Assembly (NCBI GenBank): GCA_016933535.1
Contig: JAFGAS010000060.1
Coordinates: 1 to 35,260 of the forward strand
Reading direction: 5' to 3'
Source: Candidatus Zymogenaceae bacterium
Lineage (GTDB): Bacteria; Desulfobacterota; Zymogenia; Zymogenales; Zymogenaceae
Length of the DNA stretch: 35,260 nt
Shown: positions 335 through 25,112 of the stretch, one piece after another
Layout: each line of letters starts with the position of its first letter
Position numbering within the stretch: position 1 is the stretch's first letter
Notes under the pieces: model-generated
What the model saw: only the letters and a program-made list of their open reading frames with translations
Told to the model about the DNA's origin: nothing
The model's database searches: none
Made by a program: the position numbers and the translations under genes

Positions 335-810
335 TCACCACATCACGTGGGCGGGCAAAATGCTGCCGCCCCTTCGTGCCGGCGGCCGTGTCTTTTCACT
401 CCCGATGGTCCCGTGCCGGATGCAGTCAACCGTCTCGGTGGCCCCGTGCGGGGCGTCCGGGACCGGCCCGCACCCCATGACGTTTTTGTTGGGGATGTCC
501 TGGGTGTATTTGATGCGCAAGGTCGCGGTGGGTTTGAACCCGAACCTCTGATAATAGGCGGCGGTGCCGACGAGGTATAGGGCCGTATGGCCAATCTCCC
601 GTGCCAATTTAGAATTCTCCATTACCGGGGCCGGGCCAACCCCCGGTTGGGGCGTTCCAGCACCATGCAAAGGGGCCCCAGGAGGAGCACGTCAAAAGTC
701 CTTTCGCCGTCGGCGACATGGGCCACCGTCGGCATGAAGCAACTGATGAGTTCGCCGCCCTCTTCGGTCACCGGCGCAAGCTCCGGGATATAATCGCCGC
801 CGGTTTGCTC
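335..810 (-). pseudogene. Decayed GNAT-family N-acetyltransferase
   Basis: Two pieces of one GNAT acetyltransferase lie in different frames. Reading leftward from the stop codon of the GH116 gene, the first piece runs GGDYIPELAPVTEEGGEL..., then TFDVLLLGPL, which is the central beta-strand and acetyl-CoA entry region of YhbS-like GNAT proteins, and stops at a TAA at 622-624. The second piece continues in another frame from about 632 with MENSKLAREIGHTALYLVG and AYYQRFGFKP, the usual C-terminal part. The shift falls in the GC-rich run at about 621-640. The first 40-50 residues normal for the family are missing: the remnant starts directly after, and in frame with, the neighbouring stop codon. 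It should not make a working enzyme. The exact C-terminal end is uncertain. Confidence 0.72.
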
Positions 811-3718: not shown

Positions 3719-5359
3719 ATGAAAAAGATGTGCGGCGCCGATATACTCATCCAGGCCCTCCTGTCCGAAGGGGTCACGGTCGCCTTCGGCTATCCAGGGG
3801 GGGCGATACTGCCGCTTTACGACCGGCTGTGTAACTGCCCCATCCGCCACATCCTGGTGCGGCACGAGCAGGGGGCGGCCCACATGGCCGACGGGTATGC
3901 CCGGGCCTCGGGCAGCGTCGGCGTGGCGATCGCCACCAGCGGCCCCGGTTCCACGAACCTGGTCACCGGGCTTGCCACCGCCTACCTCGACTCGTCGCCG
4001 GTCGTGGCGATCACCGGCCAGGTGGAGCGCCGCTTCATCGGCACCGACGCCTTCCAGGAGGTGGACATCGTCGGGATCACCATCCCCATCACCAAGCACA
4101 ACGAGCACATCTTGTCGGCCGGCGATATTTACGCTGCGGTCAAGCGGGCCTTTTACCTCGCCCGAAGCGGCAGGCCCGGCCCGGTGCTCCTGGATATACC
4201 CAAGGACGTGCTGATGGAGGAATGTCCGTTTGACCCGCGGCAGGAGGTGGCCATCGAGGGCTATAACCCGATTACAGAGGGGCATGGGGGACAGATAAAG
4301 CGGGCGGCAAAGCTGCTCGGCCAGGCAAAATCCCCCGTTATCGTGGCGGGCGGCGGGGTGATTCGTTCGCGGGCAACCGAGGAGCTGATCAGGCTCTCAC
4401 GGCTCCTAGGGGCGCCGATCCTCACGACCCTCATGGGTAAATCGGCCGTGCCCCAGGACTTCGAGTATTACCTCGGGATGATCGGGATGCACGGCAGCCA
4501 GGCGGCCGTTCGGACGCTTCAGAATGCCGACGTTATTGCGGCGGTGGGGGCGCGCTTCGGAGATCGGGCGGTGCTCTCTTATAAGAAATTCGAGAAGCTT
4601 GCCCGCTTCATCCAGATAGACATTGACCCGGCCGAGATCGAAAAGACCGTCGAGGTGGATATTCCCATCGTCGGGGACGCAAATAGGATCCTGACCGAGA
4701 TCAACAATCGGTTGGCAACGGAAGAAGGGGAGGCCGCCGTCGTCCCGAAGGCCGTGCCCCGAGCGCGCCCGGAGCGTTACGAGGGATCGGGGCCGCTGTC
4801 CATCCCCGCGGTGGTGCAGACGCTGTCGGACCGGGGCGGCGACTGTATCGTAGTCACGGACGTGGGCCGCCACCAGATCTGGGCGGCCAAGTATTACAGC
4901 AGCCCCAATCTTCCCGTCGGCCTCTTTATTACCTCGGGGGGGCTGGGGACGATGGGGTTCGGGCTGCCGGCCGCCCTCGGGGCAAAGCTCGCCCATCCCG
5001 AAAGACAGGTTGTCCTGATCACCGGCGACGGGAGCTTCCTTATGAACATCCAGGAGCTGGCCACCTCGGGCCACCACGACATCCCGATCCTGGTCGTGGT
5101 CATGAACGATCACCACCTCGGTATGATCCGTCAGCTTCAGGATGCCTTCTACAAGAACAACTACGCCGAGTGCACCTTTCCGCCCGGCGTGGACTACGTC
5201 GGCCTGGCGCGGGCCATGGGGCTTGACGGCACGCGCGTAACAGACATCGGCGAGGTCAACGACGCGGTCGATCGGGGGCTTTCCTCTAAAAAGACGTTCG
5301 TGATCGAGTGCATCATCGAGTCCCAGGAAAATATCCCGTATCAGTCCTATGATGAGTAA
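3719..5359 (+). CDS. ilvB: Acetolactate synthase, large (catalytic) subunit
   Basis: A 546-residue thiamine-diphosphate enzyme that joins two pyruvates to 2-acetolactate, or pyruvate and 2-oxobutyrate to 2-aceto-2-hydroxybutyrate, the first common step to valine, leucine and isoleucine. The N-terminal pyrimidine domain has the catalytic glutamate (Glu50) in RHEQGAAHMADGYARASG. The central domain covers about 190-330. The C-terminal diphosphate-binding domain has GDGSFLMN (about 436) and NDHHLGM about 26 residues later, the metal-ThDP signature. Length is normal for the family. The ATG is preceded by a good AAGGTGG. Two regulatory-subunit genes follow directly, which makes this the biosynthetic AHAS rather than the catabolic AlsS. 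Confidence 0.96.
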   Translation: MKKMCGADILIQALLSEGVTVAFGYPGGAILPLYDRLCNCPIRHILVRHEQGAAHMADGYARASGSVGVAIATSGPGSTNLVTGLATAYLDSSPVVAITGQVERRFIGTDAFQEVDIVGITIPITKHNEHILSAGDIYAAVKRAFYLARSGRPGPVLLDIPKDVLMEECPFDPRQEVAIEGYNPITEGHGGQIKRAAKLLGQAKSPVIVAGGGVIRSRATEELIRLSRLLGAPILTTLMGKSAVPQDFEYYLGMIGMHGSQAAVRTLQNADVIAAVGARFGDRAVLSYKKFEKLARFIQIDIDPAEIEKTVEVDIPIVGDANRILTEINNRLATEEGEAAVVPKAVPRARPERYEGSGPLSIPAVVQTLSDRGGDCIVVTDVGRHQIWAAKYYSSPNLPVGLFITSGGLGTMGFGLPAALGAKLAHPERQVVLITGDGSFLMNIQELATSGHHDIPILVVVMNDHHLGMIRQLQDAFYKNNYAECTFPPGVDYVGLARAMGLDGTRVTDIGEVNDAVDRGLSSKKTFVIECIIESQENIPYQSYDE

Positions 5360-5375
5360 ATCCAGGAGCCGGACC

Positions 5376-5894
5376 ATGCAGAAGGTTATTTCTATTCTCG
5401 TGGAAGACAAACCGGGCGTCCTCATGCGGATTGCCGGGCTCTTCTACCGCCGGGGCTTCAATATAGACGCCCTGTCGGTGGGCAGCACCGAGATATCCGG
5501 CAAGAGCCGCTTTACCATTACGGTCAACGGCGACGAAGCAGTCCTCGAGCAGGTCAGAAAGCAGGTTCAGAAGCTGCTGAACGTCCACCGCACCGCCGAG
5601 CACGACAGCAAGAACTCCCAGCTCAGGGAGTACGCCCTCATCAAGATCAACTTTACCGAAAGCACCAAGACCGAGATCATCCACCTCGTCGAGTTCTTTC
5701 GGGGCCGGGTCATCGATATTTTCGACGGGGCGGCCATCATCGAGATCGCCGAGGAGGAGTCCCGCATCGACGCCTTCATAGAGCGGCTCACCCCCTACGG
5801 GATCATCGAGTCACTCAGAACCGGAAAGGTGTCCATGTACCGCGGCAAGAAATCGCTGTCGACCCCCACGAAGGTAATCAAGCTGGCGGGGTAA
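5376..5894 (+). CDS. ilvN: Acetolactate synthase, small (regulatory) subunit
   Basis: A 172-residue IlvN/IlvH subunit that activates the catalytic subunit and normally gives feedback inhibition by valine. The N-terminal ACT domain begins VISILVEDKPGVLMRIAGLF and carries the RRGFNIDALSVG segment typical of effector-binding IlvN proteins; a C-terminal regulatory domain follows (about 85-172). The start at 5376 is preferred to the two ATG codons at 5349 and 5352, which overlap the end of ilvB, because AGGAG at 5364-5368 lies seven bases before it. It begins 16 bases after the ilvB stop and is surely co-transcribed. Confidence 0.95.
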   Translation: MQKVISILVEDKPGVLMRIAGLFYRRGFNIDALSVGSTEISGKSRFTITVNGDEAVLEQVRKQVQKLLNVHRTAEHDSKNSQLREYALIKINFTESTKTEIIHLVEFFRGRVIDIFDGAAIIEIAEEESRIDAFIERLTPYGIIESLRTGKVSMYRGKKSLSTPTKVIKLAG

Positions 5895-5951
5895 TGATCG
5901 AGCTTTCTATAACGCCCCTCTGTTTTCGGAGCAGGGGTCGGGGAAGGAACC

Positions 5952-6503
5952 ATGGATAAAAAGTTAGACCGGATCCTGAGGATCTATCCGAAGGAGGACG
6001 AAAAAGAGTATACGCTCTACATCCTCTGTGAGAATAAGCCGGGTGTGACGGCCAACGTTAGTAACGTCATCTCACGCCGCGGCTTTAACATCACCTCGTT
6101 TATCGGCGCCGGCACCATGACCGACGATGTCTACAAGATCATCATCAAGCTCTATGCGACGCCCACGGGCCTGAAAGGGATCGTCAAACAGATCGCCAAA
6201 CTCATCAACATCATCGAAGTCAAGAACTCCATGTCCGATGAGTTCGTCGAATACGAGATGGTCCTGGTGAAGCTTACCTATTCACCCGATAACCACGGGG
6301 ATATCTTTCAGGTCGTCAATCACTATTACGGCGAGATCGTGGATCTCTCCGACAATAAGCTGACCGTCGCCTTTACCGGGACGCCCCAGAAACTGGACAC
6401 GATCCTGGCGCTCATCAGGCATTTCGGAATCCTGGACATCGTGAAGTCGGGAATCGCCGTCATGAGAAAATACGAAGAAAACGGCATTACCGGTACGCCA
6501 TAA
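5952..6503 (+). CDS. Second IlvN-like ACT-domain protein
   Basis: A 183-residue paralogue of the preceding gene. It has an ACT domain with the same pattern (YILCENKPGVTANVSNVISR, RRGFNITSF) and a matching C-terminal half, but little detailed identity to the first copy; the N-terminus is longer by about 20 charged residues. It is probably an alternative regulatory subunit of acetolactate synthase, giving a different inhibition pattern, or a sensor derived from one. A clear AAGGA precedes the ATG. The 57-base gap after ilvN holds a small GC-rich hairpin (CCCCT with AGGGG), so co-transcription is likely but its level could be lowered. The second-subunit function is inference. Confidence 0.85.
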   Translation: MDKKLDRILRIYPKEDEKEYTLYILCENKPGVTANVSNVISRRGFNITSFIGAGTMTDDVYKIIIKLYATPTGLKGIVKQIAKLINIIEVKNSMSDEFVEYEMVLVKLTYSPDNHGDIFQVVNHYYGEIVDLSDNKLTVAFTGTPQKLDTILALIRHFGILDIVKSGIAVMRKYEENGITGTP

Positions 6504-6513
6504 TATGCGGGAA

Positions 6514-6537
6514 GGCCCTCGGTGCTAACAAAGGGCC
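6514..6537 (+). terminator. Weak hairpin after the ilv genes
   Basis: GGCCCT (6514-6519) pairs with AGGGCC (6532-6537) across a 12-base loop just after the last ilv gene. There is no T run after it, so if it ends transcription it is not a standard intrinsic terminator. Confidence 0.25.
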
Positions 6538-6645
6538 ATATAAAAAACGCTACGGCTTACATGTGGAATCCGACTCTTTCAATGGTACCCGATAAAGGAC
6601 CGTCCCGCCGCCGGTATCGGTGGTTTTCAGTCCTGACCATATTAT

Positions 6646-7473
6646 ATGGAAAATAGTTTCCTGATCCCCATCCTCATTACCGTGGCCGCCGGGCTGTCTA
6701 CCGGCATAGGCAGTATCGCCGCTCTTTTCGTCAAACAATTCAAACACAAATACCTCTCGTTGATGCTCGGTTTTTCCGCGGGGGTCATGGTCTATGTCTC
6801 CTTTGCCGATCTCCTCTTTAAATCGGTCCACGAGATCGGTCTGGTATGGAGCAACGTCTGGTTTTTTGCCGGGATCGGCTTGATTGCCGTTGTCGAGCGC
6901 GTTATTCCCCATATTTGGCTCGAAGAGAAGCAGAATGCCTTTCCGGTCAATGGCGATCCAATAGTCACCTCGAGACGCCGTCGGCGCAGGGAGCGTGAGG
7001 GGAGCGGCGCTATCTCGGACGAACAGCTTATGAACACGGGGCTCTTGACGGCCGCGGGAATCGCCATCCACAACTTCCCGGAGGGCATGGGAGTCCTGTT
7101 TACCTCTATGCACGACCTGACCGTCGGGATACCGCTGGCCGTGGCCATCGCTCTACACAACATACCCGAGGGGATCGCGGTCTCGATACCGATCTATTAC
7201 GCCACGAAGAGCCGGAAAAAGGCCTTTCTCTATTCCTTTTTTTCGGGGGTAACGGAGCCCCTGGGGGCTATCTTCGGGTACCTGATCATCCGCCCCTTCC
7301 TTACCGAATCGGTACTGATGGGCACGCTGTCTGTGGTGGCGGGGATTATGGTCTTTATCTCGTTTGACGAGCTGCTTCCCGTCTCATTTTCCCGGGGCGA
7401 GGAACACATCGCCATCCTCGGGCTCTTTATCGGGATGGGGATGATGGCCTTTTCGCTGTCGATCCTGTCATAA
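6646..7473 (+). CDS. zupT: ZIP-family divalent metal transporter (ZupT-like)
   Basis: A 275-residue inner-membrane protein with about eight hydrophobic segments that should import zinc, iron or similar divalent metals into the cell. The two metal-site helices carry the ZIP signatures HNFPEGMG (about 141) and HNIPEGIAVSIP (about 171). The loop between the third and fourth helices, often rich in histidine in this family, here holds a run of arginines (SRRRRRRERE, about 108-117) and no histidine cluster. Length is normal for ZupT. The ATG lacks a clear ribosome site. It stands between the ilv operon and an unknown membrane protein gene, 79 bases before the latter; nothing ties it to either by function. 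Confidence 0.92.
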   Translation: MENSFLIPILITVAAGLSTGIGSIAALFVKQFKHKYLSLMLGFSAGVMVYVSFADLLFKSVHEIGLVWSNVWFFAGIGLIAVVERVIPHIWLEEKQNAFPVNGDPIVTSRRRRRREREGSGAISDEQLMNTGLLTAAGIAIHNFPEGMGVLFTSMHDLTVGIPLAVAIALHNIPEGIAVSIPIYYATKSRKKAFLYSFFSGVTEPLGAIFGYLIIRPFLTESVLMGTLSVVAGIMVFISFDELLPVSFSRGEEHIAILGLFIGMGMMAFSLSILS

Positions 7474-7552
7474 TACGCGGGCCGGATACCCGACCCGCCG
7501 GGACGGCGGAAATGACCCGATATCGTTTTTCGTCACGTGAGAGGTCACGTAT

Positions 7553-8320
7553 ATGGTGTGGACAACCTATCGGCGGCATCTGCCGGCCCTCCTGATTATG
7601 ATTGCCGCCGCCGGACTATGGCTCGCGCTGTTACCTTCCCTGCCGGACCCGATGACCGTTTATCGCACGTTCTCGCCGGACCCCATCTTTGCCGCCGAGC
7701 CGATAATCCCGATCATCGCGATGTGCGGTTTCATGCTGATATCCCACATCGTCATCGTGTTGATCGATCTCTTCCTGTTTGCCCCCGTGGTCCCGGGGTA
7801 TATCATGGCCGCGATCGACTGGATCGTGGAAGGGAGCACGGCGGTCTTCTATCTTTCGGTTCTTTGCGCAGGTATAACGATCCTGCCGTTTGCCGCCGGT
7901 TTGCTCATCGGCGCCGTCGGGATGTTCGCTGTCCTTGCGATTGCCTATCGGAAATCAAAGGAATCCGTCCAAGGGGCGGCAGGTCCCCTGCTTTACTCTC
8001 CCTATTTCGAGCGGATAGGGCCCTCTCTCATGACGACGATCTTCTTTTTCCTCCGGCCCCTCTTTCCATCCTATATTGTCATTGTCCCGGTTGGGATCAG
8101 GATTATCGGGATACTCTACGACGTTACCTATCCCTGGGAGCGGATCGATCGGGTGAAAAAGGGAGATTTTATGACCTTTTTTTCCAACAGGCCGGTCAAG
8201 CTCAATCAGGCGCTTGCCAACACCGTGGAGATTCGCCTGAAGGATCGGAAAAAGTATCCGGTGATTTCGGTCGGGGACCGGGACCGCTTCCTGGACGCGG
8301 CGGCGCAGTTTATGACGTGA
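7553..8320 (+). CDS. Unknown multi-pass membrane protein
   Basis: A 255-residue protein I do not recognise with certainty. Hydrophobic segments lie at about 9-28, 50-77, 97-130 and 157-188; the C-terminal 65 residues are hydrophilic and basic and probably cytoplasmic. The N-terminal stretch LLPSLPDPMTVYRTFSPD resembles the start of DUF1648/SdpI-type proteins (a hydrophobic helix followed by an LPDP motif), but the rest does not clearly follow that family. GAGAGG lies nine bases before the ATG. Another frame is open over the same bases (7537-8454) but has arginine-rich, non-membrane content; the frame chosen gives proper membrane helices and is the real one. Confidence 0.78.
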   Translation: MVWTTYRRHLPALLIMIAAAGLWLALLPSLPDPMTVYRTFSPDPIFAAEPIIPIIAMCGFMLISHIVIVLIDLFLFAPVVPGYIMAAIDWIVEGSTAVFYLSVLCAGITILPFAAGLLIGAVGMFAVLAIAYRKSKESVQGAAGPLLYSPYFERIGPSLMTTIFFFLRPLFPSYIVIVPVGIRIIGILYDVTYPWERIDRVKKGDFMTFFSNRPVKLNQALANTVEIRLKDRKKYPVISVGDRDRFLDAAAQFMT

Positions 8321-8332
8321 GGGTAGGGGACA

Positions 8333-8617
8333 TTGGTATCTTGTCGGCCGCGTATCAAAGAATTTCGTCCTTTTTTTCGGCACTGCGGCTGCCTGCTGTT
8401 ACGGGGCGGCGGATCAAACCTCACCAGGGCGTCCGTCAATGGAAAATACTATAACCTGTTGAAGGTGATCAACGTCCCTGAGGACAAAGGTTCCTACGGT
8501 GACTTTAACGACTATGGGTACTATTCGAGCACTTCGTATGCGGGATACGACAATATCCCGGCGGGCTACTGGGTCTACGTCTACCCCGACTGGTACATCT
8601 GGGGAAATCAGAAATAG
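8333..8617 (+). CDS. Small exported protein of unknown function, N-terminus apparently frameshifted
   Basis: The last 50 or so residues are Tyr/Gly/Trp-rich (YYNLLKVINVPED, YGDFNDYGYYSSTSYAGY, GYWVYVYPDWYIWG) and look like a conserved small secreted domain that I have seen in proteobacteria but whose function I do not know. The first 40 residues in this frame (MVSCRPRIKEFRP...) are implausible and start at a TTG with no ribosome site. In a neighbouring frame the same bases encode a signal-peptide-like run, KNFVLFFGTAAACCYGAAD, which stops soon after. The simplest reading is a frameshift near 8410 that separates a signal peptide from the mature domain, so the gene may be broken. An intrinsic terminator follows. 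Confidence 0.55.
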   Translation: MVSCRPRIKEFRPFFRHCGCLLLRGGGSNLTRASVNGKYYNLLKVINVPEDKGSYGDFNDYGYYSSTSYAGYDNIPAGYWVYVYPDWYIWGNQK

Positions 8618-8624
8618 TCTGGGA

Positions 8625-8645
8625 GGGGGCGAAAGCCCCCTTTCT
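8625..8645 (+). terminator. Intrinsic terminator
   Basis: GGGGGC (8625-8630), a GAAA tetraloop and GCCCCC (8635-8640), followed by TTTCT. It ends plus-strand transcription after the small exported protein, just before the convergent V4R gene. Confidence 0.8.
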
Positions 8646-8658
8646 CCTCCCTGCCCGC

Positions 8659-9285
8659 TCAGTCTTTTGGGCGATATGAAACGAACCGGCACATCGGGTC
8701 GCCTTTTGCTATACAGTGGGTTTCCTCGATCTTAATATCCTTTCCGAAAATCCATCTGGCCAACCCGAGTTCAAAACCAATCTCGCCGTGACAGATCGGT
8801 GCCTCCGTTTTGAGCCCCATACACCAGTAACACGGGGATATCTCTAATGCCCACGAATCCCCCGTGCGGGACGTCTTATGAAGGCCGTCTCCAAAAATAT
8901 ACGTCGCCGCATCGTTCATGGTGTGTTGTATCCGCACGTATTCGTCAAAGAGCTTATCGGTAGTGCCGTTTTCGATCTGTACGCCATCCAACGCGAACAG
9001 ACCGGGCATGTCCCTGAGCATAATCTCGAAGGAGCGTATTCCCGACAGCAGCATCACTGAGCGGGCGCCCTTCTCGCCGAGGACCTGTATGAGACCTGCG
9101 GTAAAACGGGTAAAGTCCGATGACGGGTGCTCGAGGTCTAGCGTGTTCGGGGGATAATTGTTAATATACTGGGAGAGCTTTGCGTAGTTAAGTACCGCGT
9201 TAAGGCCGTTTTTCCCGAGGACCTCTTCAATAGTAACGAATGCGAGATTGAAGAGCTGGTTGGGCAGTTTGTCTTTGAGGGGCAT
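8659..9285 (-). CDS. V4R-domain protein 1
   Basis: A 208-residue protein with a helical N-terminal half (about 1-120) and a C-terminal V4R (4-vinyl reductase) domain, the fold shared by BchJ-type proteins and the sensor modules of some sigma-54 activators such as XylR/DmpR relatives. It has the Cys pattern expected for a bound metal: Cys152 and Cys155 in CYWC, Cys165 in APIC, Cys191 in THC and Cys199 in DPMC. No DNA-binding or ATPase domain is present, so it is a stand-alone binding or sensing protein, not a regulator by itself. AGGAGA lies six bases before the ATG. Two paralogues occur at 19351 and 24504, all with the same build. A sigma-54-type promoter stands upstream. Ligand unknown. Confidence 0.88.
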   Translation of the reverse strand: MPLKDKLPNQLFNLAFVTIEEVLGKNGLNAVLNYAKLSQYINNYPPNTLDLEHPSSDFTRFTAGLIQVLGEKGARSVMLLSGIRSFEIMLRDMPGLFALDGVQIENGTTDKLFDEYVRIQHTMNDAATYIFGDGLHKTSRTGDSWALEISPCYWCMGLKTEAPICHGEIGFELGLARWIFGKDIKIEETHCIAKGDPMCRFVSYRPKD

Positions 9286-9420
9286 CTATTGTCTCCTGAT
9301 TGTGAGAGAGTAAACGAAAAGCGAGCCGTAGCCTAAAGCTGCCTGCTCGCGCCACGCGTCCGAACAGAGAATAAGCAGAAACCGATGAAGATGAACAGTT
9401 GGGGTTGATCCATTTATATA

Positions 9421-9437
9421 AGCAATCGCCGTACCAA
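9421..9437 (-). promoter_or_regulatory. Sigma-54-type (-24/-12) promoter for V4R protein 1
   Basis: On the minus strand the 17 bases read TTGGTACGGCGATTGCT. This fits the TGGCACG-N4-TTGCW consensus with one change, and GG and GC have the required ten-base gap. A start would lie near 9409, giving a leader of about 124 bases to the V4R gene. It implies control by an enhancer-binding activator, whose gene is not in the window. Confidence 0.6.
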
Positions 9438-9759
9438 TTATCGTGAGGTAATCCCGTGATATTTTAATCAGTTATGTAAGAAAAGGCGCAGTTTGTGGCA
9501 CATAAGACCTGACTATCCGCAACGTGCCTTCCGGGCAAAGGGTTAGGATGCAAAAAAAAGCAAACTCTTTTGCTCCAGAGGAAACAGCTTGTTATTATTG
9601 GCAATTTATATGAATTGAGGTGCAAAATATTTTACAGGCATGTGTAGGAAAATCGTTTTCATTTCATAAATCGACAAGATATCCAATCGGCCGTTCCTTT
9701 TCCTCCTGTTCTTATTACTGTGAAAACAGAAAGTAATAAAAAAACCCTACTTTTTATTA
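9438..9759. other. AT-rich intergenic region between divergent genes
   Basis: About 320 bases between the V4R gene and the kinase promoter contain no convincing reading frame. The stretch is markedly richer in A and T than the genes. It may hold activator sites for the sigma-54 promoter at its left side, but I could not pick out a clear repeated site. Confidence 0.4.
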
Positions 9760-9788
9760 TTGAAAAAAGTTTTTCAAAATACTATAAT
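9760..9788 (+). promoter_or_regulatory. Sigma-70 promoter of the hybrid kinase, overlapping a palindrome
   Basis: TTGAAA (9760-9765), a 17-base spacer and a perfect TATAAT (9783-9788). The -35 box and spacer form an almost continuous inverted repeat, TTGAAAAA-AG-TTTTTCAA (9760-9777), which could be an operator. Transcription should start near 9795, with a leader of about 110 bases. Confidence 0.72.
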
Positions 9789-9906
9789 CCAAGGTCAGGA
9801 GAAGCTGCGGGACGGAAGACGAGATACCGCGCAAGACCACCGTATCATCGGCTTACGGTACGTGTTGATTTCTGTACCTCCGGTCTATTGACGGGATAAC
9901 GGGTGT

Positions 9907-12900
9907 ATGGCACGAGGGAAAAAGAAAACGCTCCTTCTATTCATTGAAAATAGTCCCGCCGATACACAACAAATCGGCCAAATGCTTGCTGTGGCGGGCG
10001 GCCGGACATTCGTGATGAGGACCGTCACCAATCTTGCCGAAGGGCTGGAACTCCTGGATCGGGAAGGCTTTGACGTTATCCTTTTGGACATGGACCTCCC
10101 CGGCGTTTCCGGCATGGATGCGCTCCGGACGATAATCTCCCGCCATCCGAAAATCCCGGTTATCGTAATTTGTGCCACCGATGACGACTCGACGACTATC
10201 AAGACCGTTGCCGAGGGCGCCCAGGACTATCTTATCAGGGGGCATCTGGACGGCAGCCTGATCGTGCGGGCGGTGCGCTGCGCGATCGAAAGGATGCGCA
10301 ACCGTGACGAGATCAAGAAACTGGAGGAGGAGATAGACAGGAGGGTCGAAGAACGAACGGCCCAGTTAGGACTCACAACAAAGAAGCTGATCGAACGCAA
10401 TGAGTTCAATTTCGCGTTGTTTGAATACAACCCCATAGAGACCATCGTCGTCGATCTAGAAGGCAGAATCGTCAACTTCAACCGGGCCAAGAGGCTGTCA
10501 AAAGGCGGGATCCCGAATATCGGGACATTGATGTACCGCGATTTTGCCGGCAGGCATCACAACGATATGCGTAATGAGCTGATGGACGCCATAGGCAGCG
10601 GTACGGTAAAAAACTTTCCCGAGCAAAGGTACGATAATCGATACCTCGCGATAACCATATCTCCGTTTTCCCAGGGCGCCATCATCACGTCTCAGGATAT
10701 TACGGCCCAACGGGTGGCCCAGGAGGCCCTCAGAGAATCCGAAGAAAAATACCGCCTGGTAGTGGAGAATGCTATAGATGGGGTTGCGATTATCCAGGAC
10801 GGCCGGTTCAACTATCTCAATCCCGCCGCGTGTTCGATTATCGGCTACCCGGAAGGCGAGCTCCTCGGCAGACAATTTACTGAATTTATCGCCCCCGACG
10901 ATCGAAACGAACTGGTTCGGGAATACGAGCGCAAGCTGTCCGGAGACGATCTCACCTATCCGACCGCGTTCCGGTTGATCGGCGGGGACGGGTCAATACG
11001 GTGGGTTGAGGCGATCGGCGTGGGGGTATCCTGGGACGGGGAGCCGGCTCTTCTTTCCTTCATGCGGGATATCTCGGACCAGAGGCGGGCTGAAGACGCC
11101 CTGAAAGAAAGTGAAAGGAAATACCGGATGCTCGTGGAGAGTCTCGACGAGGGAATCTGGGTTATCGATCAGGACGGCGCTACGACCTACACCAACCCCC
11201 GGATGGCCGAGATGCTCGGGTATACCGACCAGGAGATGATAGGGCGCCACCTCTTCTCGTTCATGGACGAAACGATGGTGCCGGACGCTGAAAAAAAGAT
11301 CGAGCGGCGGAAAAGAGGCATCCGGGAAAGCCATGAATTCGAGTTTCTTAAAAAAGACGGGAACCGGATACACGCCCGGCTCGTGACATCGCCGATGTAC
11401 GACGATAAGGGACGATATACCGGGGCGCTGGCGGCCGTGTTGGATATAACGGAAAAGATGCGGGCGGAAACGCTGGTGAGGGATTCGGAAGAGCGCTACC
11501 GGGAGCTCGTGGAAAATATTGAAGATATCATCTATGTTATCGACAGCGACGGGGCTATCATATTTGCCAATAGGGCCTCCGAACAGTTCACCGGATATGA
11601 TAAGGACGAACTGGTCAAAAAGAATTTTCGGGAGTTGGTACTGCCCGAATCGTACGGCTACGCGGGGGAGATATTCAAACGGCAGGTGGCGGGCGAAGAC
11701 GTCGGAACGTTCGAGCTCCGATTGATGAAGAAAAGCGGCCAGGTCATCGTGCTGGAAACGAGGGAACGCCCGGTATGGGACGGGGATAGGATTGTAGAGA
11801 TCCACGGCCTCGGACGGGATATCACCGACAGGAAAAGGACCGAGGAGGTGCTCAGGCAGTTCGAGGAAAAATGGCGCAATTTCATCGAGACGTCCCGGGA
11901 CGTCATCTTTCTAACGACGCTCGAAGGCAAGGTTGTCGATATAAACCCGGCGGGGCTGGAGCTTTCCGGCTATACCAGGGAGGAATTTGTCGGCAAGGAC
12001 ATAGCGGAAAACTACACGAACCGTTCGGATCGGGAGCCGTTCATCAAGACCATCATCGAAAAGGGATTCGTGAAAGACCTTGAGCTTAATTTATTAAGAA
12101 AAGACGGGTCGGTCGCTCATTGCATGATTACGGCCACCCAGCGAAGAGACAAGGGTGGAAACGTCATCGGATTCCAAGGAATCATAAAGGACATCACCGA
12201 GAAAAGAAATCTGGAACAGCAGCTCATCCAGGCGCAGAAAATGGAGGCTATCGTAGCCCTTGCGGGGGGGATAGCCCATAACTTCAACAATATCCTGGTT
12301 GGGATTATGGGGTATTCGGAATACCTCCTTTCAAAGAAAGGCCCGGATGACCACGACTATAAGGCGCTCAAGACCATCCATGAGGGGACCATCAAGGCAT
12401 CCACCCTCGTCAAACAACTCCTGGACGCGGCGCGGGTTGGACAGTATAATCCCGTTAGAATTAATCTCAACGACGTCATAAACGGCACCCTTCCGCTCAT
12501 TCAGGGCACCTTTGACAAATCAATCGAAATCGTAACCCATTTAAGCCGCGACCTGATGATCATTGAGGCCGACGCCGGCCAATTGGAGCAAAGCCTCCTC
12601 AATCTCTGTATCAACGCCAGGGACGCCATGCCGTCGGGCGGCAGCCTCATCATCGAGACCGCCAATAGACGGCTGGATAAGAGCTTTGCGGATTCCCATC
12701 TCGGCATCAAGGAGGGGGCGTACGTGGTGCTGTCGGTCACCGATACCGGAATCGGTATGACACCGGAGGTCACGGAACGGATATTTGAGCCCTTTTTCAC
12801 CACAAAAGACCAGGCCGGCGGAAAGGGGATGGGGCTCGCCACGGCGTACGGCATCATGAAAAATCACGGGGGCAAGATAACCGTCTATAGCGAGCCCGGC

Positions 12901-13344
12901 AAAGGAACGACGTTCAGACTCTATTTTCCGGCCGTGACCGAACAGCCGATCGATAATGCGGCCCAGCAAGACCGGGGGGGAGACAAGATCCTTATCGTCG
13001 ACGACGATAAGGCCGTCAGGGATCTGTGGAGCGGTTTCTTGTCGGAAAACGGCTTTACGGTCCTGGCGGCCGAAAACGGTCGGAAGGGAATAGAGATATT
13101 CCGCGTGCAGCCGGACGAAATAGACCTCGTCATAGTCGACCTGGTAATGCCCGAGATGGGAGGAAAGGAAACCATCGGCAGGCTCAAAGAAATAAAACCG
13201 GACATAAAGGTGCTCGGCTCCTCGGGCTACAGCGCCAACGGCCAGGCTCGGGATATGGTTGCTATGGATGTGGACGGTTTCATCCAGAAACCGTCACAGC
13301 TTTCCGAGCTTATTGAAATTGTCAGGAAGATCCTCAAGACATAA
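9907..13344 (+). CDS. Hybrid sensor histidine kinase (REC - five PAS - HisKA - HATPase - REC)
   Basis: A 1145-residue cytoplasmic kinase without membrane segments. Domains in order: an N-terminal receiver (about 7-125, phospho-acceptor Asp61 in ILLDMDLPG), a short coiled coil, five PAS domains starting near 165, 281, 405, 530 and 655, a dimerisation domain with His791 in GGIAHNFNNIL, a HATPase with N box NLCINARDAM and G boxes DTGIGM and GKGMGLATAYG, and a C-terminal receiver (about 1020-1143) with Asp1078 in VIVDLVMPEMGG. In the first receiver the usual conserved lysine near the end is an arginine (YLIRG), and the first acidic pair is partly lost (FIENSPAD), so it may signal weakly. No response regulator gene adjoins it, so it is an orphan whose signal and target are unknown. 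The ribosome site is weak (GGGTG). Confidence 0.95.
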   Translation: MARGKKKTLLLFIENSPADTQQIGQMLAVAGGRTFVMRTVTNLAEGLELLDREGFDVILLDMDLPGVSGMDALRTIISRHPKIPVIVICATDDDSTTIKTVAEGAQDYLIRGHLDGSLIVRAVRCAIERMRNRDEIKKLEEEIDRRVEERTAQLGLTTKKLIERNEFNFALFEYNPIETIVVDLEGRIVNFNRAKRLSKGGIPNIGTLMYRDFAGRHHNDMRNELMDAIGSGTVKNFPEQRYDNRYLAITISPFSQGAIITSQDITAQRVAQEALRESEEKYRLVVENAIDGVAIIQDGRFNYLNPAACSIIGYPEGELLGRQFTEFIAPDDRNELVREYERKLSGDDLTYPTAFRLIGGDGSIRWVEAIGVGVSWDGEPALLSFMRDISDQRRAEDALKESERKYRMLVESLDEGIWVIDQDGATTYTNPRMAEMLGYTDQEMIGRHLFSFMDETMVPDAEKKIERRKRGIRESHEFEFLKKDGNRIHARLVTSPMYDDKGRYTGALAAVLDITEKMRAETLVRDSEERYRELVENIEDIIYVIDSDGAIIFANRASEQFTGYDKDELVKKNFRELVLPESYGYAGEIFKRQVAGEDVGTFELRLMKKSGQVIVLETRERPVWDGDRIVEIHGLGRDITDRKRTEEVLRQFEEKWRNFIETSRDVIFLTTLEGKVVDINPAGLELSGYTREEFVGKDIAENYTNRSDREPFIKTIIEKGFVKDLELNLLRKDGSVAHCMITATQRRDKGGNVIGFQGIIKDITEKRNLEQQLIQAQKMEAIVALAGGIAHNFNNILVGIMGYSEYLLSKKGPDDHDYKALKTIHEGTIKASTLVKQLLDAARVGQYNPVRINLNDVINGTLPLIQGTFDKSIEIVTHLSRDLMIIEADAGQLEQSLLNLCINARDAMPSGGSLIIETANRRLDKSFADSHLGIKEGAYVVLSVTDTGIGMTPEVTERIFEPFFTTKDQAGGKGMGLATAYGIMKNHGGKITVYSEPGKGTTFRLYFPAVTEQPIDNAAQQDRGGDKILIVDDDKAVRDLWSGFLSENGFTVLAAENGRKGIEIFRVQPDEIDLVIVDLVMPEMGGKETIGRLKEIKPDIKVLGSSGYSANGQARDMVAMDVDGFIQKPSQLSELIEIVRKILKT

Positions 13345-13394: not shown

Positions 13395-15356
13395 CTACAG
13401 CTTTAATTCTCCCAGGCCCAGCTCCCTGATTTTGTCCTTCGTAGGGCCGCCGGTCTTTTCGTCCCAGCCCATCATGTCGAAAAAGCCCTTCTCCAGCCCC
13501 GGCATATCCAGCGTCAGCCCCTTGTGTGGACCGGCCTTCATCGGGGGGCTGCCCCAGCCGCGGCCGTTCATGGCCGAATCCTTGGCGTCAAGCCCCTCGC
13601 GGACGTTAAAGGCCTTGCGCAGCGACAGCAGCCGCTCGGCGATGGTCCAGTAGTCGTCGGGACCGAGTTTCCACCCGGTGGAGGCGTTGATGTATTCGAT
13701 GATCGGAAGCGGGCTCGTCAGCGGTCCGAACTCGCACATCCCGCAGCCGTTCATGATCTGCATATAGAGCGTTGTCGCCTTGTAGAGGGCGACGTCCTTC
13801 ATCTCACCTTTGGCCGCCTTGATCTCCTTCTTGGCCTGGGGGAAGATCTTCTTGACCCCCCACAGGTTGCCGTAAAGCAGGCTGGCGATGGTGTGACGGC
13901 CCGGGGTCGGCTCGCATTGATAGGCGAGGGCAAAACCCTTGTCGAGCTTGGGGTCGTGCATGGGCAGTTCCTGGCCACCCGCGTGCACGGCGTATTTGTC
14001 CGACCCCTTGCCGATCTCCTCGGCCGCCTTGCGCGAGCCGTCGGCCAGCAGGTCACCGATGCCCTTGCGCTCGATGATCATCTCGACAAGCTTCTTGATC
14101 TCAGCGGATTTTCCCCAGCCGAGCTTAAGGCCGCCGGTATCCTTTTCGGTGATGATGCCCTTCTCGAAACATTCGATGGCAAAGGCCACCGTCCCGCCGG
14201 TGGAAATTGTATCGATGCCGGCGCGGTTGCACATCTCGTTGATCTCGACGATCTCGTCAAGGTTGTCGTGGAGGATCAGGGCGCCGAAGGCGCAGAGGGT
14301 CTCATATTCGGGCTTGTGCCCCTCGGTCCCCTTGTATTTGCCCGTCTTGATGTCGAAGATACCGCCGCAGCCCAGCGGGCAGGACTGACAGTGATATTTC
14401 TTCTTCTCGTTCTTGACGAGCTCTTTATCGGAGAGCTTGTAACTCATCGTGTCTACGGGGAACTCTTTATAGCCAACCCCGTCCCAGTTTTTGACCGGGC
14501 TGTCGCCGACTTCGGCCGAATAGCCGGTCAGGCCGCCGGTGCCGTACTGCTTCATGAGCAGACGGACGGTGGAAGGCTGGGTGGGGATGGAGACGCCGGT
14601 TCTGCCGATGATCTTGCTGATGAAGTTGAGCATCATCACGGAGATCTTGTCGGGCGGGCCGATCTTCTTGAACTTGTTCATGAACTTCTTGTTGAGGTCT
14701 TTCATCTTCTCCGGGTCGGCCACGGTAACCTTGCCCTTGCCGCGGACGGAAAAGGCCTTCAGCTTCTTGGATCCCATAATCGCGCCCAGCCCGGAGCGGG
14801 CGGCAATCCTGCCGCTGTCGGTGACGATACCGGAGATGAGAGAGATTTTCTCTCCCGATATGCCGATCGAGGCAACCTGGACGTTCTTGTCCTTGAGTTC
14901 GCCCTTGATGGCCTCTTCGGTTTCAACCGTGTCTTTACCCCAGAGTTTCTTGGCGTCCTTGAATTCGACTTTTCCGTCTGCGATATGCACCCAGACGGGT
15001 TCCTTGGCCGCCCCGGTAAAGAAGACGGCGTCGTATCCGGTCTTCTTCAGTTCGTTCGAGAAAAAGCCGCCCGAATTGGCGTCGCCCCAGCCGCCGGTAA
15101 GCGGCGACTTTCCCACGACCATATAGCGGCCGGAGAACATGGCGCCCGTCCCGGTAAGAAGCCCGGTGCAAAAACCGAGGTAGCTCTCGGCGGAGAGAGG
15201 ATTGATGCCCGGTTTCTGCCGTTCGGTGATAACCGCTGCGCCCAGCCCGTAGCCCGAGAGATACTTCTTGTAGAATTCCTCTTTCGGCTCGATGATGTCA
15301 AAACTTTTCTTGCCCAGATCGATGATCAGATATTTTCCCGTGAATCCACCCGGCAT
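13395..15356 (-). CDS. aor: Aldehyde:ferredoxin oxidoreductase, tungsten/molybdopterin type
   Basis: A 653-residue AOR-family enzyme. Such enzymes oxidise aldehydes to acids, or run in reverse, with ferredoxin, using a tungsten-bis-pyranopterin site and one [4Fe-4S] cluster. The N-terminal AOR domain (about 1-210) has the expected YLSGYGLGAAV and GDANSGGFFSNELKKTGYDA. Cluster ligands are in CQSCPLGC (Cys at about 322, 325 and 329) and a further Cys in NGCGMCEFG (about 538). The start is the ATG at 15356, with GGAGG five bases before it; a longer frame to 15389 has no ribosome site. No membrane or signal segment. Substrate cannot be told; relatives act on simple or aromatic aldehydes. The shared terminator at 13350 ends it. 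Confidence 0.94.
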   Translation of the reverse strand: MPGGFTGKYLIIDLGKKSFDIIEPKEEFYKKYLSGYGLGAAVITERQKPGINPLSAESYLGFCTGLLTGTGAMFSGRYMVVGKSPLTGGWGDANSGGFFSNELKKTGYDAVFFTGAAKEPVWVHIADGKVEFKDAKKLWGKDTVETEEAIKGELKDKNVQVASIGISGEKISLISGIVTDSGRIAARSGLGAIMGSKKLKAFSVRGKGKVTVADPEKMKDLNKKFMNKFKKIGPPDKISVMMLNFISKIIGRTGVSIPTQPSTVRLLMKQYGTGGLTGYSAEVGDSPVKNWDGVGYKEFPVDTMSYKLSDKELVKNEKKKYHCQSCPLGCGGIFDIKTGKYKGTEGHKPEYETLCAFGALILHDNLDEIVEINEMCNRAGIDTISTGGTVAFAIECFEKGIITEKDTGGLKLGWGKSAEIKKLVEMIIERKGIGDLLADGSRKAAEEIGKGSDKYAVHAGGQELPMHDPKLDKGFALAYQCEPTPGRHTIASLLYGNLWGVKKIFPQAKKEIKAAKGEMKDVALYKATTLYMQIMNGCGMCEFGPLTSPLPIIEYINASTGWKLGPDDYWTIAERLLSLRKAFNVREGLDAKDSAMNGRGWGSPPMKAGPHKGLTLDMPGLEKGFFDMMGWDEKTGGPTKDKIRELGLGELKL

Positions 15357-15391
15357 AGTGTCCTCCATTTTTGTATGATGACGCTTCACAT

Positions 15392-15545: not shown

Positions 15546-15569
15546 CAAAAAAACCTCCCGGCGGGAGGT
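15546..15569 (-). terminator. Intrinsic terminator of the selenoprotein gene
   Basis: On the minus strand ACCTCCC, loop GCC, GGGAGGT (15553-15569) and then a run of T (15546-15553). It lies about 50 bases after the stop of the multihaem gene and separates it from the AOR promoter. Confidence 0.85.
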
Positions 15570-15617
15570 CACTTTCTGTCTCTTGTCTCTATAGGGCGGA
15601 TTTCTTGCCGTGCGCCC

Positions 15618-17237
15618 CTACGGTGCCGGGCACATGATCTTCTTGAGGTCCTCGGCGTAGACGAAGTTATCGTCGTTTTCGGGGTCGTGGCAGGAGATAC
15701 AGTCGGCCGCCGCGGTCAGCGATTTCATCTTATTGGCCGTGTTATCCTTGACGTGCAGGCTCCCGGGTCCGTGGCAGACCTCGCACTGGACGCCCAGCAA
15801 GTCTTTTGCCGTCAGGATATTGGTGAAGCCGCCCGGTTTTCTGTATCCGGTGGTGTGGCAGCCGATGCAGTCGGGCTCAAATTGGCGTTCCTTTTCCCTC
15901 AGCGTCTCGTAGGCCTTTGGGTGGGCGGTGCCGGAGACGAAGGAGTATATCTTGGCATGACACATCCTGCAGCTTTCCATCCCCGTATAATGGGGCTCGA
16001 CCGCCAGCGAGGTGATATCCCGTGCCCCCCCCTTGAGCAGCGATTCCTTCTCCTGATTCTTTATCTCCTTGAGCTTGTCGGCGTATTTCTTGAAAATGCC
16101 TCTTACGTCCGGATCGTCCTCAAGGCCCGAATCCAGGGCGATCAGGGTCGCCTTGACCGTGTTCGGGTGTTCCTTGCCCGACGCCTTGCCCATCTCCTCG
16201 ATTTTTTCCTCGACCTGTTTCATCTCGTCGGTGACGACCTTTTCGATATTTGAAACGTCCTTGCCTGCTTTCTTCTGGGCCTCTATGTCGGCAATGAAGA
16301 CGTCGAGCTGCTTTTTCCTCATGAGCAGTTCCCTGTTTTCGAAAGAGTCCGACTTATCGCTTCCCACGACAAAGAAGTCATAAGGACGCACGGGGTTGGT
16401 GATCGAGAAGTCAAGGCGGTCGATGTATTTGCCCCGGGCGAATACCTCGGTGAGCAGGGTCCTGCGTTCGGTGATCGGTTGAAAGAGATTGATGCTGCCA
16501 CCGTGGCCCACGATCATCAGGTCGATGTTGTTGAAGCCCTTGGCCAGGACCTTGGCATCGACAAGACCGGTGTGGGAGAGCACCACGATGAAGTCCGACT
16601 TGTTGGCAAGCTCCTTGAGGACGGCCGCCAATGAATTGGCCGGATCGGCCACATATATCCCGAGCTTTTCCTGCCGCTTGACCGAAAAGTTCGTATCTTT
16701 GCCGATAACCGAGGTAATCCCGACGCGAAAGCCGTTGAGCTTGACGACGGTATAGGGCTCGAAGACATATTTATTTGTCTCGGCGTCTAATATATTGGCG
16801 GCAAGAAACGGAAACTTCGCCGTCTTTTCGAGGTCTTTGAGATAGTCCACGCCCAGGGCGAAATCTTTCTCGCCTAAGCCGAGCGCCGTCCATCCCATCA
16901 CGTTCATGGACTCGATGATCTTCTTGCCCTGCACGGCGAGCGCAATGTCGGGATTGTCGCCGTAGTCAGTGTCGTGAAACAGCAGATCGCCCGCGTCCAG
17001 AAGGATGGGATCTTTGACCTCTTCCCTTACCGTGCCGATATAGGTTGCTTTCCTGGCCAGACCGCCAAGCAGATTAGATTTTCACCCACAGGGCTCGGTC
17101 TCGCCGAGCAGATCGTTGCTGTAAACGATGGTGAAATCAGCGGGCGTGGGCGTATAGTTCTTGCAGTAGGAGACGCCCAGAAAAACGAAAAAGATCGCCA
17201 GGATTGTCACAATGTTGGGTCGGAGCGTTTTGCGCAT
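15618..17237 (-). CDS. Putative selenoprotein: metallophosphoesterase-like domain with four c-type haem sites
   Basis: A 539-residue exported protein, read with UGA at 17082-17084 as selenocysteine (residue 52). Order: hydrophobic export signal (about 9-24, then Cys25); 5'-nucleotidase/UshA-like domain (about 35-290) starting YSNDLLGETEPCG-U; a charged helical stretch (about 300-390); four haem motifs CRMCH (423), CIGCH (457), CEVCH (485) and CISCH (513). Several metal ligands of true UshA enzymes are changed: the NDxHG motif reads NDLLG, GNHEF reads GEKDF, GHSH reads GHGG, while DAGD and SHTG remain. It may thus be a redox protein built on the phosphoesterase fold. As I recall, relatives carry EPCGC, so Sec replaces the second Cys. 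ATG at 17237 has GGAG seven bases upstream and a consensus promoter. Read as stop, the UGA leaves only a 437-codon fragment from an inner ATG at 16934. Confidence 0.85.
17046..17084 (-). promoter_or_regulatory. Bacterial SECIS element following the UGA
   Basis: Counting U of UGA as base 1, the mRNA forms a six-pair stem, CUUGGC (16-21) with GCCAGG (28-33), closed by the loop GGUCUG. An alternative lower stem pairs UGCUU (14-18) with AAGCA (35-39). The loop bases G23 and U24 and the stem base U17 fall at the same positions as those needed for SelB binding in the E. coli fdhF SECIS, whose loop is also GGUCU. The element lies inside the coding sequence, as is the rule in bacteria. Confidence 0.8.
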
Positions 17238-17263
17238 CAAGGTTCTCCAGAGTAATTTTTGCC

Positions 17264-19350: not shown

Positions 19351-19968
19351 ATGGGTCTAAACGAGAAAGTACCAAATCAGCTGCTATACCTGACGTTCAT
19401 GACGGCAAAGGAAGTACTGGGCGAAAATGGACTGAACACCATCCTCAACTACGCCGGTCTGCAGCGGTTCATCGACAATTATCCCCCGGATAACCTCGAG
19501 ATGGGGGTTTTAAACAAGGAATTCATCCAGTTCCTGACGGGCGTTATCGGCGTCTTCGGGGAAAAGGGCGCCCGGCCGATCCTCTTCCGGGGGGGCATGA
19601 GGTCTTTCGAGATCATGAAGGAGCAGTTTCCGAGCCTGTATGCCATGGACGGCATCGACAAACACGACAGGACCCCCGAAAAGCTGTTTGGCGAGCTCAA
19701 GCGCATATATCAGTTGATCGTCGACGCGTCCGTATACATACACGGTGACATCTACAAGTATTATGAGGACAAAGAGGGACTTGTCCTGGAAATTGCTCCC
19801 TGCCACTGGTGCCTCGATCTAAAAACGGAAGGCCCTATCTGCTTCGTGCAAACGGGATTTCAGCAGGGCCTCGCGCGCGAGATCCTCGGCCAAACCGTTA
19901 CTATCGAGGAGACCCGCTGCATTGCGGCGGGCGATGAAATGTGTAAATTTGTCATACACCGGCCGTAG
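19351..19968 (+). CDS. V4R-domain protein 2
   Basis: A 205-residue paralogue of V4R protein 1, clearly alike from end to end: VPNQLLYLTFMTAKEVLGENGLN at the start, GEKGARP and GGMRSFEIM in the middle, and a V4R domain with Cys151 and Cys154 (CHWC), Cys164 (GPIC), Cys190 (TRC) and Cys198 (EMC). AAGGAG stands six bases before the ATG. It has no partner domain. It follows the amidohydrolase on the same strand and may be read with it. The likely role is binding a small hydrophobic or tetrapyrrole-like ligand or a metal, by family analogy only. Confidence 0.88.
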   Translation: MGLNEKVPNQLLYLTFMTAKEVLGENGLNTILNYAGLQRFIDNYPPDNLEMGVLNKEFIQFLTGVIGVFGEKGARPILFRGGMRSFEIMKEQFPSLYAMDGIDKHDRTPEKLFGELKRIYQLIVDASVYIHGDIYKYYEDKEGLVLEIAPCHWCLDLKTEGPICFVQTGFQQGLAREILGQTVTIEETRCIAAGDEMCKFVIHRP

Positions 19969-24503: not shown

Positions 24504-25112
24504 GTGAAAGATCGCATCCCGAATTCTCTTATGTACGTATCTCTATTGGCCCTCAACGAGATACTGGGACAAAACGGTTTGAACGCGGTTCTTAATTACG
24601 GGAATCTCAAACGGTTTCGGGATAACTTTCCCCCCAACAACGACAAGACCGAGATCCCGATGGCAGAGTTTATCTGCCTCATAAAGAGCGTTATCGATAT
24701 ACTCGGAGAGCGGGGTGCGCGGCTCCTTCTCTACAACGCGGGAGGCAAGGGGTTCCGTGTTGTGCTTGAATAGAATCCCGGCCTCTTCGGGCTCATAAAC
24801 CTCGGCCTGAAGGTGCTCTCCCCGCAAAAGCGCGCTGAAAAGGCCCTCAAGGTAGCCACCAAAGAGGGCGATAAGATCTTCGGGATCAAGCAGAAGTTCA
24901 CGGTCCTCGAGAACGGTTTTAAAACCGAGATAGCCGACTGCTACTGGTGCGAGGGGCTGAAAACGAAGGCGCCGATCTGTCACGGGGAGGTGGGATTCGA
25001 GGCCGAGCTGGTAAAATGGGCCGCCGGCGGCGGCATCCAGTATGATGTAAAGGAAGTCACGTGCATCGCCTGCGGGGACCCCACCTGCACGTTCGTGGTG
25101 ACGGAGAAATAG
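24504..25112 (+). pseudogene. V4R-domain gene 3, interrupted by an in-frame amber codon
   Basis: The frame encodes about 202 residues, alike end to end with V4R proteins 1 and 2 (IPNSLMYVSLLALNEILGQN; GERGAR; ADCYWCEG, APICHGEVGFEAEL, VTCIACGDPTC), but codon 90 (24771-24773) is TAG. Both sides are in the same frame and both look conserved, so one base change explains it: the aligned residue in protein 2 is Gln, and CAG to TAG is a single transition. The first 89 residues would be made, with AGGAG six bases before a GTG start. The C-terminal metal-type Cys domain would be lost unless there is readthrough. Other genes in the window end in TAG, so pyrrolysine is unlikely. Confidence 0.75.

What the first reader, a model, noticed from the sequence alone, without database searches (positions are those of the whole stretch)
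15618..17237. Unannotated selenoprotein: haem-bearing metallophosphoesterase with a PCG-Sec motif
The frame from 16934 to 15618 continues upstream through one TGA (17082-17084) to an ATG with a ribosome site and a perfect TTGACA-17-TATAAT promoter 20 bases before it. The upstream part is needed: it carries the export signal, without which the four CxxCH haem sites could not be loaded in the periplasm. The TGA directly follows PCG, at the place where, as I recall, relatives have Cys (EPCGC). The mRNA after UGA forms a stem with loop GGUCUG, with U17, G23 and U24 at the positions used by the E. coli fdhF SECIS. Sec in an exported c-haem protein of this fold, with altered metal ligands, may be a new redox chemistry.
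Basis: partly seen in the sequence, partly recalled or inferred. Interest (0 to 1): 0.93.

Follow-up and report, generated by a model that had tools for sequence, protein, structure and literature searches.

The report
Exported tetrahaem UshA-like selenoprotein
This gene is interrupted by one TGA stop codon that is very likely read as the selenium amino acid selenocysteine, giving a predicted exported four-haem protein of an already catalogued family, in which a cysteine-selenocysteine pair has likely taken over from the mostly lost metal site of a phosphate-cutting enzyme.

Summary
Frame 17237-15618 (-) is open except for one TGA (17084-17082) directly after PCG. Relatives have Cys or TGA at this codon: 57 Cys and 21 TGA in the 78 of 80 independently found loci that cover it. 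Of the 30 best phylum loci, 29 have TGA and one has lost both Cys and Sec. TGA genes carry a hairpin with a GGU loop that Cys genes lack (five or more contiguous pairs: 31 of 39 against 1 of 32). The genome has tRNA-Sec, selA and selD. selB was not found, but EF-Tu is also only in pieces in this 89%-complete assembly, and the three other genomes of its bacterial family have selB.

It is not a new selenoprotein family: NCBIfam NF041198 'UshA_like_PCGU' matches full length (539 bits, cut-off 275), and the family is in print (2008, 2026). New here: phosphoesterase metal ligands are mostly lost (129 of 164 relatives keep at most one of four), while CxC/CxU and the four haem motifs persist. My reading is a periplasmic thiol/selenol redox enzyme wired to four haems (inferred; substrate unknown). 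A paralogue in this genome sits in an ars-type cluster with thioredoxin, ArsF and DsbD-like ArsG.

The parts
15618..17237 (-). UshA-like tetrahaem selenoprotein gene, ATG to TAG, 539 codons plus stop, codon 52 = TGA
   Evidence: NF041198 539 bits against cut-off 275
17082..17084 (-). in-frame TGA, predicted Sec52
   Evidence: TGA or Cys codon at the same place in 78 of 78 covering named loci; TGA in 29 of 30 phylum loci
17082..17093 (-). Pro-Cys-Gly-Sec motif (residues 49-52)
17052..17069 (-). SECIS-like hairpin: 6-bp stem, apical loop GGUCUG
   Evidence: covariance model R2 hit at 17084-17043, 45 bits
17264..17292 (-). promoter TTGACA-17-TATAAT
   Evidence: 12 of 12 matches, 0 in 100 shuffles of the window; activity untested
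17245..17248 (-). ribosome-site-like GGAG
   Evidence: sequence
17163..17237 (-). N-terminal export signal or membrane anchor (residues 1-25), predicted
   Evidence: hydrophobic helix 6-24 in the model; no signal predictor was available
16038..17147 (-). UshA-type phosphoesterase fold (about residues 31-400), metal ligands partly lost
15663..15989 (-). cytochrome c554-type domain (about residues 417-525) with four CxxCH
   Evidence: PF13435 61 bits against 20.8
15552..15570 (-). intrinsic terminator after the gene
   Evidence: fold z -4.09
13395..15389 (-). downstream neighbour: aldehyde:ferredoxin oxidoreductase-like gene, neighbour in 4 of 4 genomes of the bacterial family
   Evidence: PF01314, PF02730

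Best explanation
The gene encodes a predicted exported tetrahaem protein in which an in-frame TGA very likely directs selenocysteine, and its Cys50-Gly-Sec52 pair is likely the redox centre of a periplasmic thiol/selenol oxidoreductase that would pass electrons to or from its four haems. Steps: (1) transcription from its own consensus promoter (sequence shown, activity untested); (2) the hairpin after the UGA, with its GGU apical loop, would recruit SelB and Sec would be inserted (comparison strongly supports the hairpin; decoding untested); (3) export and haem attachment in the periplasm (predicted); (4) the UshA-type fold is a scaffold whose phosphoesterase metal and catalytic residues are mostly lost in the family, while CxC/CxU is kept with one exception seen (shown by alignment); (5) the Cys-Sec pair would cycle between a selenenylsulfide and its reduced form, converting two-electron chemistry into one-electron steps through the haems (inferred). 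The substrate is unknown; thiol/disulfide or chalcogen/arsenic species are my guess from the neighbourhoods of a paralogue and of four Cys relatives.
For: NF041198 full-length match. 78 of 78 covering named loci have CxC or CxTGA, found by a cytochrome pattern and not by this motif. P0003 (Cys) is the sister of the window protein inside a Sec clade; at least 8 Sec/Cys changes on the tree. Hairpin: 31 of 39 against 1 of 32; GGT 42 of 49 against 3 of 33; model R2 hits the window site alone in the window and no Cys locus of 9. tRNA-Sec, selA, selD. selA in 17 of 21 TGA genomes against 11 of 29 Cys genomes. Metal ligands: 129 of 164 relatives keep at most one of four, haem Cys/His kept in 97-98%. 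Haem-less relatives carry CxU or CxxU. A paralogue lies with thioredoxin, ArsF and DsbD-like ArsG; DsbA-like genes follow four Cys loci.
Against: No selB found in this assembly. The window protein itself keeps four of the seven ligand or catalytic positions (D42, D84, H222, H245), so it might still bind a metal. L035, a full-length haem-type member, has lost both Cys and Sec. Haem-less relatives exist, so haems are not always part of the system. The 2008 survey set UshA-like apart from families with conserved Cys-based redox motifs (PMC2398784, passage). The hairpin alone is not significant, and the mean folding energy of the stretch is not lower in TGA genes than in Cys genes (-11.1 against -13.4 kcal/mol); only the z-score is (-1.15 against -0.09). 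The window gene's own neighbours point to no thiol partner. The distance from Sec to haem was not measured.
Confidence: 0.6

Rival explanations
1. It is still a metal-dependent hydrolase (5'-nucleotidase or SoxB-like), with Cys50/Sec52 as replacement metal ligands near the old site; the haems serve docking or structure.
For: Fold match to UshA, CD73 and SoxB. D42, D84, H222 and H245 are kept in the window protein, P0003 and L036.
Against: The catalytic-His and Asn positions are K124 and E123. 129 of 164 relatives keep at most one of four ligands; L024 and L026 of the same bacterial family have lost D84 and H222 but keep the TGA. No Pfam metallophosphoesterase or 5'-nucleotidase C-terminal domain match at E 0.001.
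Confidence: 0.15
2. A periplasmic metalloid or chalcogen oxyanion reductase (arsenic, selenium, tellurium), a narrower form of the best explanation: Sec reduces the oxyanion and the haems supply electrons.
For: Paralogue G000:C72 lies between an ArsP-type permease, a DGC-domain protein and thioredoxin-ArsF-ArsG-ACR3. The cytochrome selenoprotein ExtKL of Geobacter is a candidate for selenite reduction (PMC5877670, passages).
Against: The window gene has no such neighbours. None of the eight C72 cluster genes used as queries was found at E 1e-8 in the other loci searched. ExtKL belongs to another family (NF040886).
Confidence: 0.15
3. The TGA is a real stop: a pseudogene or a shorter 438-residue cytosolic product from the GTG at 16934.
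For: selB not found. Gene callers report truncated forms: 20 of the 112 hits are 454-485 residues long and start after the site (P0004-P0022, and P0002, the window's own 438-residue ORF).
Against: Conserved TGA with a conserved synonymous hairpin. The short form lacks the export signal and first strand. tRNA-Sec, selA and selD are present, and selD has its own in-frame TGA.
Confidence: 0.04

Closest known systems
NCBIfam NF041198 UshA-like (seleno)protein (UshA_like_PCGU; 'COG0737 UshA-like, CxU')
   Same: Full-length match, 539 bits against 275; PCGU at the defining place; haem motifs
   Different: Nothing that takes it out of the family
UshA / CD73 5'-nucleotidases
   Different: Catalytic His and Asn positions changed, ligands mostly lost in the family, tetrahaem domain in place of the C-terminal nucleotidase domain, Cys-Gly-Sec loop added
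SoxB thiosulfohydrolase
   Different: Far below SoxB's cut-off of 550; no Sec or haem in SoxB (recalled)
Cytochrome c554 (PF13435; PDB 1bvb)
   Same: Tetrahaem domain with four CxxCH
   Different: Here it is fused to a UshA-type fold
ExtKL (NF040886) of Geobacter
   Same: Predicted multihaem c-type cytochrome with a Sec residue (PMC5877670, passages)
   Different: Another family in the 2026 list; predicted five haems; no UshA-type fold mentioned in the passages seen
NCBIfam NF049981 UshA-like selenoprotein family 2
   Same: Related Sec-bearing UshA-like fold; weak match 48.6 bits
   Different: Motif CxxU; window protein is below its cut-off of 140

Membership tests
NF041198 UshA-like selenoprotein | Score over the curated cut-off across the full profile | tested here: met
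   539 bits against 275, profile 2-519 of 519
NF041198 UshA-like selenoprotein | PCG followed by Sec (TGA) or Cys | tested here: met
Bacterial selenoprotein gene | SECIS-type hairpin just after the UGA with conserved GGU loop | tested here: met
Bacterial selenoprotein gene | Genome with tRNA-Sec, SelA, SelD | tested here: met
Bacterial selenoprotein gene | Genome with SelB | tested here: inconclusive
   no hit over the cut-off; EF-Tu is also only in pieces; the three other genomes of the bacterial family have it, one match (G087) with an in-frame TAA
Bacterial selenoprotein gene | Sec shown in the protein | not testable with these tools
   needs 75Se labelling or mass spectrometry
Cytochrome c554 (PF13435) | Score over the gathering cut-off, four CxxCH | tested here: met
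   61 bits against 20.8
UshA-type 5'-nucleotidase (enzyme) | Metal ligands and catalytic Asn/His of the DxH...GD...GNH...H...GHxH signature (roles recalled) | tested here: not met
   L44, E123 and K124 in place of His, Asn, His; four others kept
UshA-type 5'-nucleotidase (enzyme) | 5'-nucleotidase C-terminal domain (PF02872) | tested here: not met
   no Pfam match at E 0.001; cytochrome domain there instead
SoxB | Score over TIGR04486 cut-off | tested here: not met
   81.3 bits against 550
NF049981 UshA-like family 2 | Score over the cut-off | tested here: not met
   48.6 bits against 140

The most novel reading that the evidence does not exclude
A kind of two-electron/one-electron converter not described before: the active site of a phosphoesterase fold has been dismantled and rebuilt as a selenenylsulfide (Cys-Gly-Sec) centre wired to four c-type haems, fed or drained by periplasmic thioredoxin-like relays, with sulfur, selenium or arsenic species as substrate.
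Probability: 0.35. Interest if true: 0.8.

Novelty: new member of a known kind. Interest (0 to 1): 0.47.

Why it matters
The family is common in the window's phylum (69 of 395 sampled genomes over the cut-off), and relatives reach Myxococcota, Planctomycetota, Nitrospinota and others. My ten paper searches turned up no reported function. That the phosphoesterase site is mostly lost while CxC/CxU and the haems persist turns a misleading 'nucleotidase-like' label into a testable redox hypothesis. The closest Sec/Cys pair (window protein and P0003, 71% identical) is a ready comparison of what selenium adds.

Tried and rejected
selB was looked for in the 13 kb around selA by reading the ORFs of 200 or more residues: none is selB-like by eye. 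Rfam on the gene region (E up to 10) gave six sub-threshold matches and none at this hairpin. PADLOC: no match. An RNA model from all 34 hairpins together took only 2 pairs because two stem registers are mixed; split by register the structure could be counted, and one register was modelled. Neighbour families seen most at the named Sec loci look like housekeeping genes (RarA-like at 9, Mn-dependent pyrophosphatase-like at 7, also TsaD- and RsmA-like; my reading of sequences, not a family search) and gave no partner. DUF1573 proteins lie near six Cys loci (one tested in Pfam); not pursued. Papers: 'multiheme, cytochrome, metallophosphoesterase, selenocysteine', 'multiheme, nucleotidase, selenocysteine' and 'metallophosphoesterase, c-type cytochrome, selenoprotein' returned none; 'UshA, multiheme' returned 6, seen as a listing apart from the 2026 review; arsF/arsG returned a listing with nothing relevant; PMC8318568 has no mention of UshA, nucleotidase, phosphoesterase or cytochrome. 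The Sec-haem distance could not be measured, as no coordinates are given out. C50 and C/U52 are invariant in the 164-row alignment by selection, so that claim rests on the 78 loci found by a cytochrome pattern; L035 is a true exception.

Full report
What is there. On the minus strand the frame from ATG 17237 to TAG 15618 codes for 539 residues with one internal TGA at codon 52, directly after Pro-Cys-Gly. A perfect sigma-70-type promoter ends 26 bases before the ATG, GGAG precedes the ATG, and a strong intrinsic terminator follows the gene. The gene is thus likely its own transcription unit. Residues 423-517 hold four CxxCH in a cytochrome c554-type domain (PF13435). The first 25 residues look like an export signal or anchor; no predictor was available.

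It is a known family. NCBIfam NF041198, 'UshA-like (seleno)protein', matches over its length with 539 bits against a cut-off of 275. The family stands as 'COG0737, UshA-like, CxU' in the 2008 ocean survey among previously characterised families (PMC2398784, passages) and as NF041198, CxU, in a 2026 review (PMC13188914, passages). The 2008 passage sets UshA-like, with SelD and FdhA, apart from the major families that have conserved Cys-based redox motifs, a view that differs from mine. In the window's phylum 69 of 395 sampled genomes hold a match over the cut-off. This genome has three members with one TGA each: the window gene, C72:91960-93495 (445 bits) and a haem-less one at C69:50209-50955, below the cut-off.

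Is the TGA read as Sec? Of the 30 best phylum loci (window included) 29 have TGA at the aligned codon. The remaining one, L035, reads PSGR with codons TCC and CGA: it has lost both Cys and Sec, and its second Gly codon is GGG, not GGT. L098 and L105 do not cover it. On a tree of 110 of the 164 rows (3 Sec and 51 Cys rows left out) the label changes at least 8 times, 5 of them forced by well-supported branches, and the Cys protein P0003 is the sister of the window protein inside a Sec clade. selA passes its cut-off in 17 of 21 genomes with TGA loci and in 11 of 29 with Cys loci (29 of the 57 Cys loci were given).

The hairpin. By itself the window hairpin is not significant. Compared across genes it is. 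In TGA genes the distance from Sec to the GG pair is fixed (49 of 49; 33 of 51 in Cys genes), and the second Gly codon is GGT in 42 of 49 against 3 of 33. After removal of near-copies (49 to 39; 33 to 32), 31 of 39 TGA genes form at least five contiguous pairs below the loop, against 1 of 32 Cys genes of the same spacing. There are two stem registers, set by the third codon after the first Gly; the synonymous third base of the Leu codon follows the register (G in 18 of 18 against 0 of 11, Leu-bearing genes only). Shared ancestry contributes to that association. Within the registers 91.7% and 94.2% of cells pair, against 16.7-60.8% when slid; each register has two pairs with changes on both sides, a count that 44 and 33 of 500 shuffles reach. 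A covariance model from 14 sequences outside the window's bacterial family, run over 317 kb in 17 sources, found the window site (45 bits, E about 4e-7) as the only hit in the window, four paralogues or relatives (L130, L131, L132, L133), and nothing in 9 Cys loci. The model also carries coding conservation, so it is not a test of structure alone. The folding z-score is lower in TGA genes (mean -1.15 against -0.09), although the plain energy is not (-11.1 against -13.4 kcal/mol).

Machinery. tRNA-Sec (75.6 bits, anticodon tca), selA (586 bits) and selD (361 bits, with an in-frame TGA) are present. selB was not found: the three hits are EF-G-like frames of 690-699 codons. The assembly is 89% complete, and EF-Tu, which every bacterium needs, gives only a 29-residue piece and two 26-residue pieces at the starts of contigs C6 and C7. 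Of 24 genomes holding the family, 22 have selB over the cut-off, including the three other genomes of the window's bacterial family (the G087 match with one in-frame TAA); G000 and G060 do not.

Neighbours. The window gene is followed by an aldehyde:ferredoxin oxidoreductase-like gene in 4 of 4 genomes of the bacterial family (window, L134, L135, L026), in the window with a terminator between; its meaning is unclear. The C72 paralogue lies in a cluster with a thioredoxin-fold protein, ArsF (95.9 bits), ArsG (288 bits; DsbD_2 in Pfam), ACR3 (444 bits), an ArsP-type permease and a DGC-domain protein. DsbA-like genes directly follow four Cys-type loci (L094, L112, L113, L121; L113 and L121 tested in Pfam). 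These fit thiol-redox work, but the eight C72 cluster genes used as queries were found at no other locus searched.

Verdict. It is a new member of a known selenoprotein family for which I found no reported function. The proposed mechanism, a selenenylsulfide redox centre on a retired phosphoesterase scaffold coupled to four haems, is the best-supported inference (0.6); the substrate is unknown.

Noticed in passing
L130 (G000:C72), TGA at 9382-9380 (-), cluster 4845-13236: A second haem-type Sec paralogue of this genome lies in an ars-type cluster: thioredoxin, ArsF, ArsG, ACR3, ArsP-type permease, TauE/SafE-like and DGC-domain proteins.
   Followed up: partly
L131 (G000:C69), TGA at 8285 (+): Haem-less UshA-like paralogue with CGU and a SECIS-model hit of 30.6 bits.
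   Followed up: partly
L035 (G111), 55-1536 (+): Haem-type member that reads PSGR (TCC, CGA) in place of PCGU: a natural loss of both Cys and Sec in a genome that has selB.
   Followed up: partly
L107 (Blastocatellia), L081 (Myxococcales), L111 (Oligoflexia): TGA forms in loci whose records name bacteria outside Thermodesulfobacteriota; for L055, L092, L104 and L111 no selA was found, which may be genome incompleteness.
   Followed up: partly
P0049, P0077: Database proteins with PCGW, probably TGA read as Trp by a gene caller using another code.
   Followed up: no
window 13395-15389 (-): Aldehyde:ferredoxin oxidoreductase-like gene next to the selenoprotein gene in 4 of 4 genomes of the bacterial family, although upstream neighbours differ.
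   Followed up: partly
window 8659-9285 (-), 19351-19968 (+): Two V4R-domain proteins; 24813-25112 (+) looks like a third, shorter one by eye.
   Followed up: no
G000:C7:1-78 and G000:C6:1-78: EF-Tu C-terminal pieces at the starts of two contigs: an assembly break at a likely repeated tuf gene.
   Followed up: no
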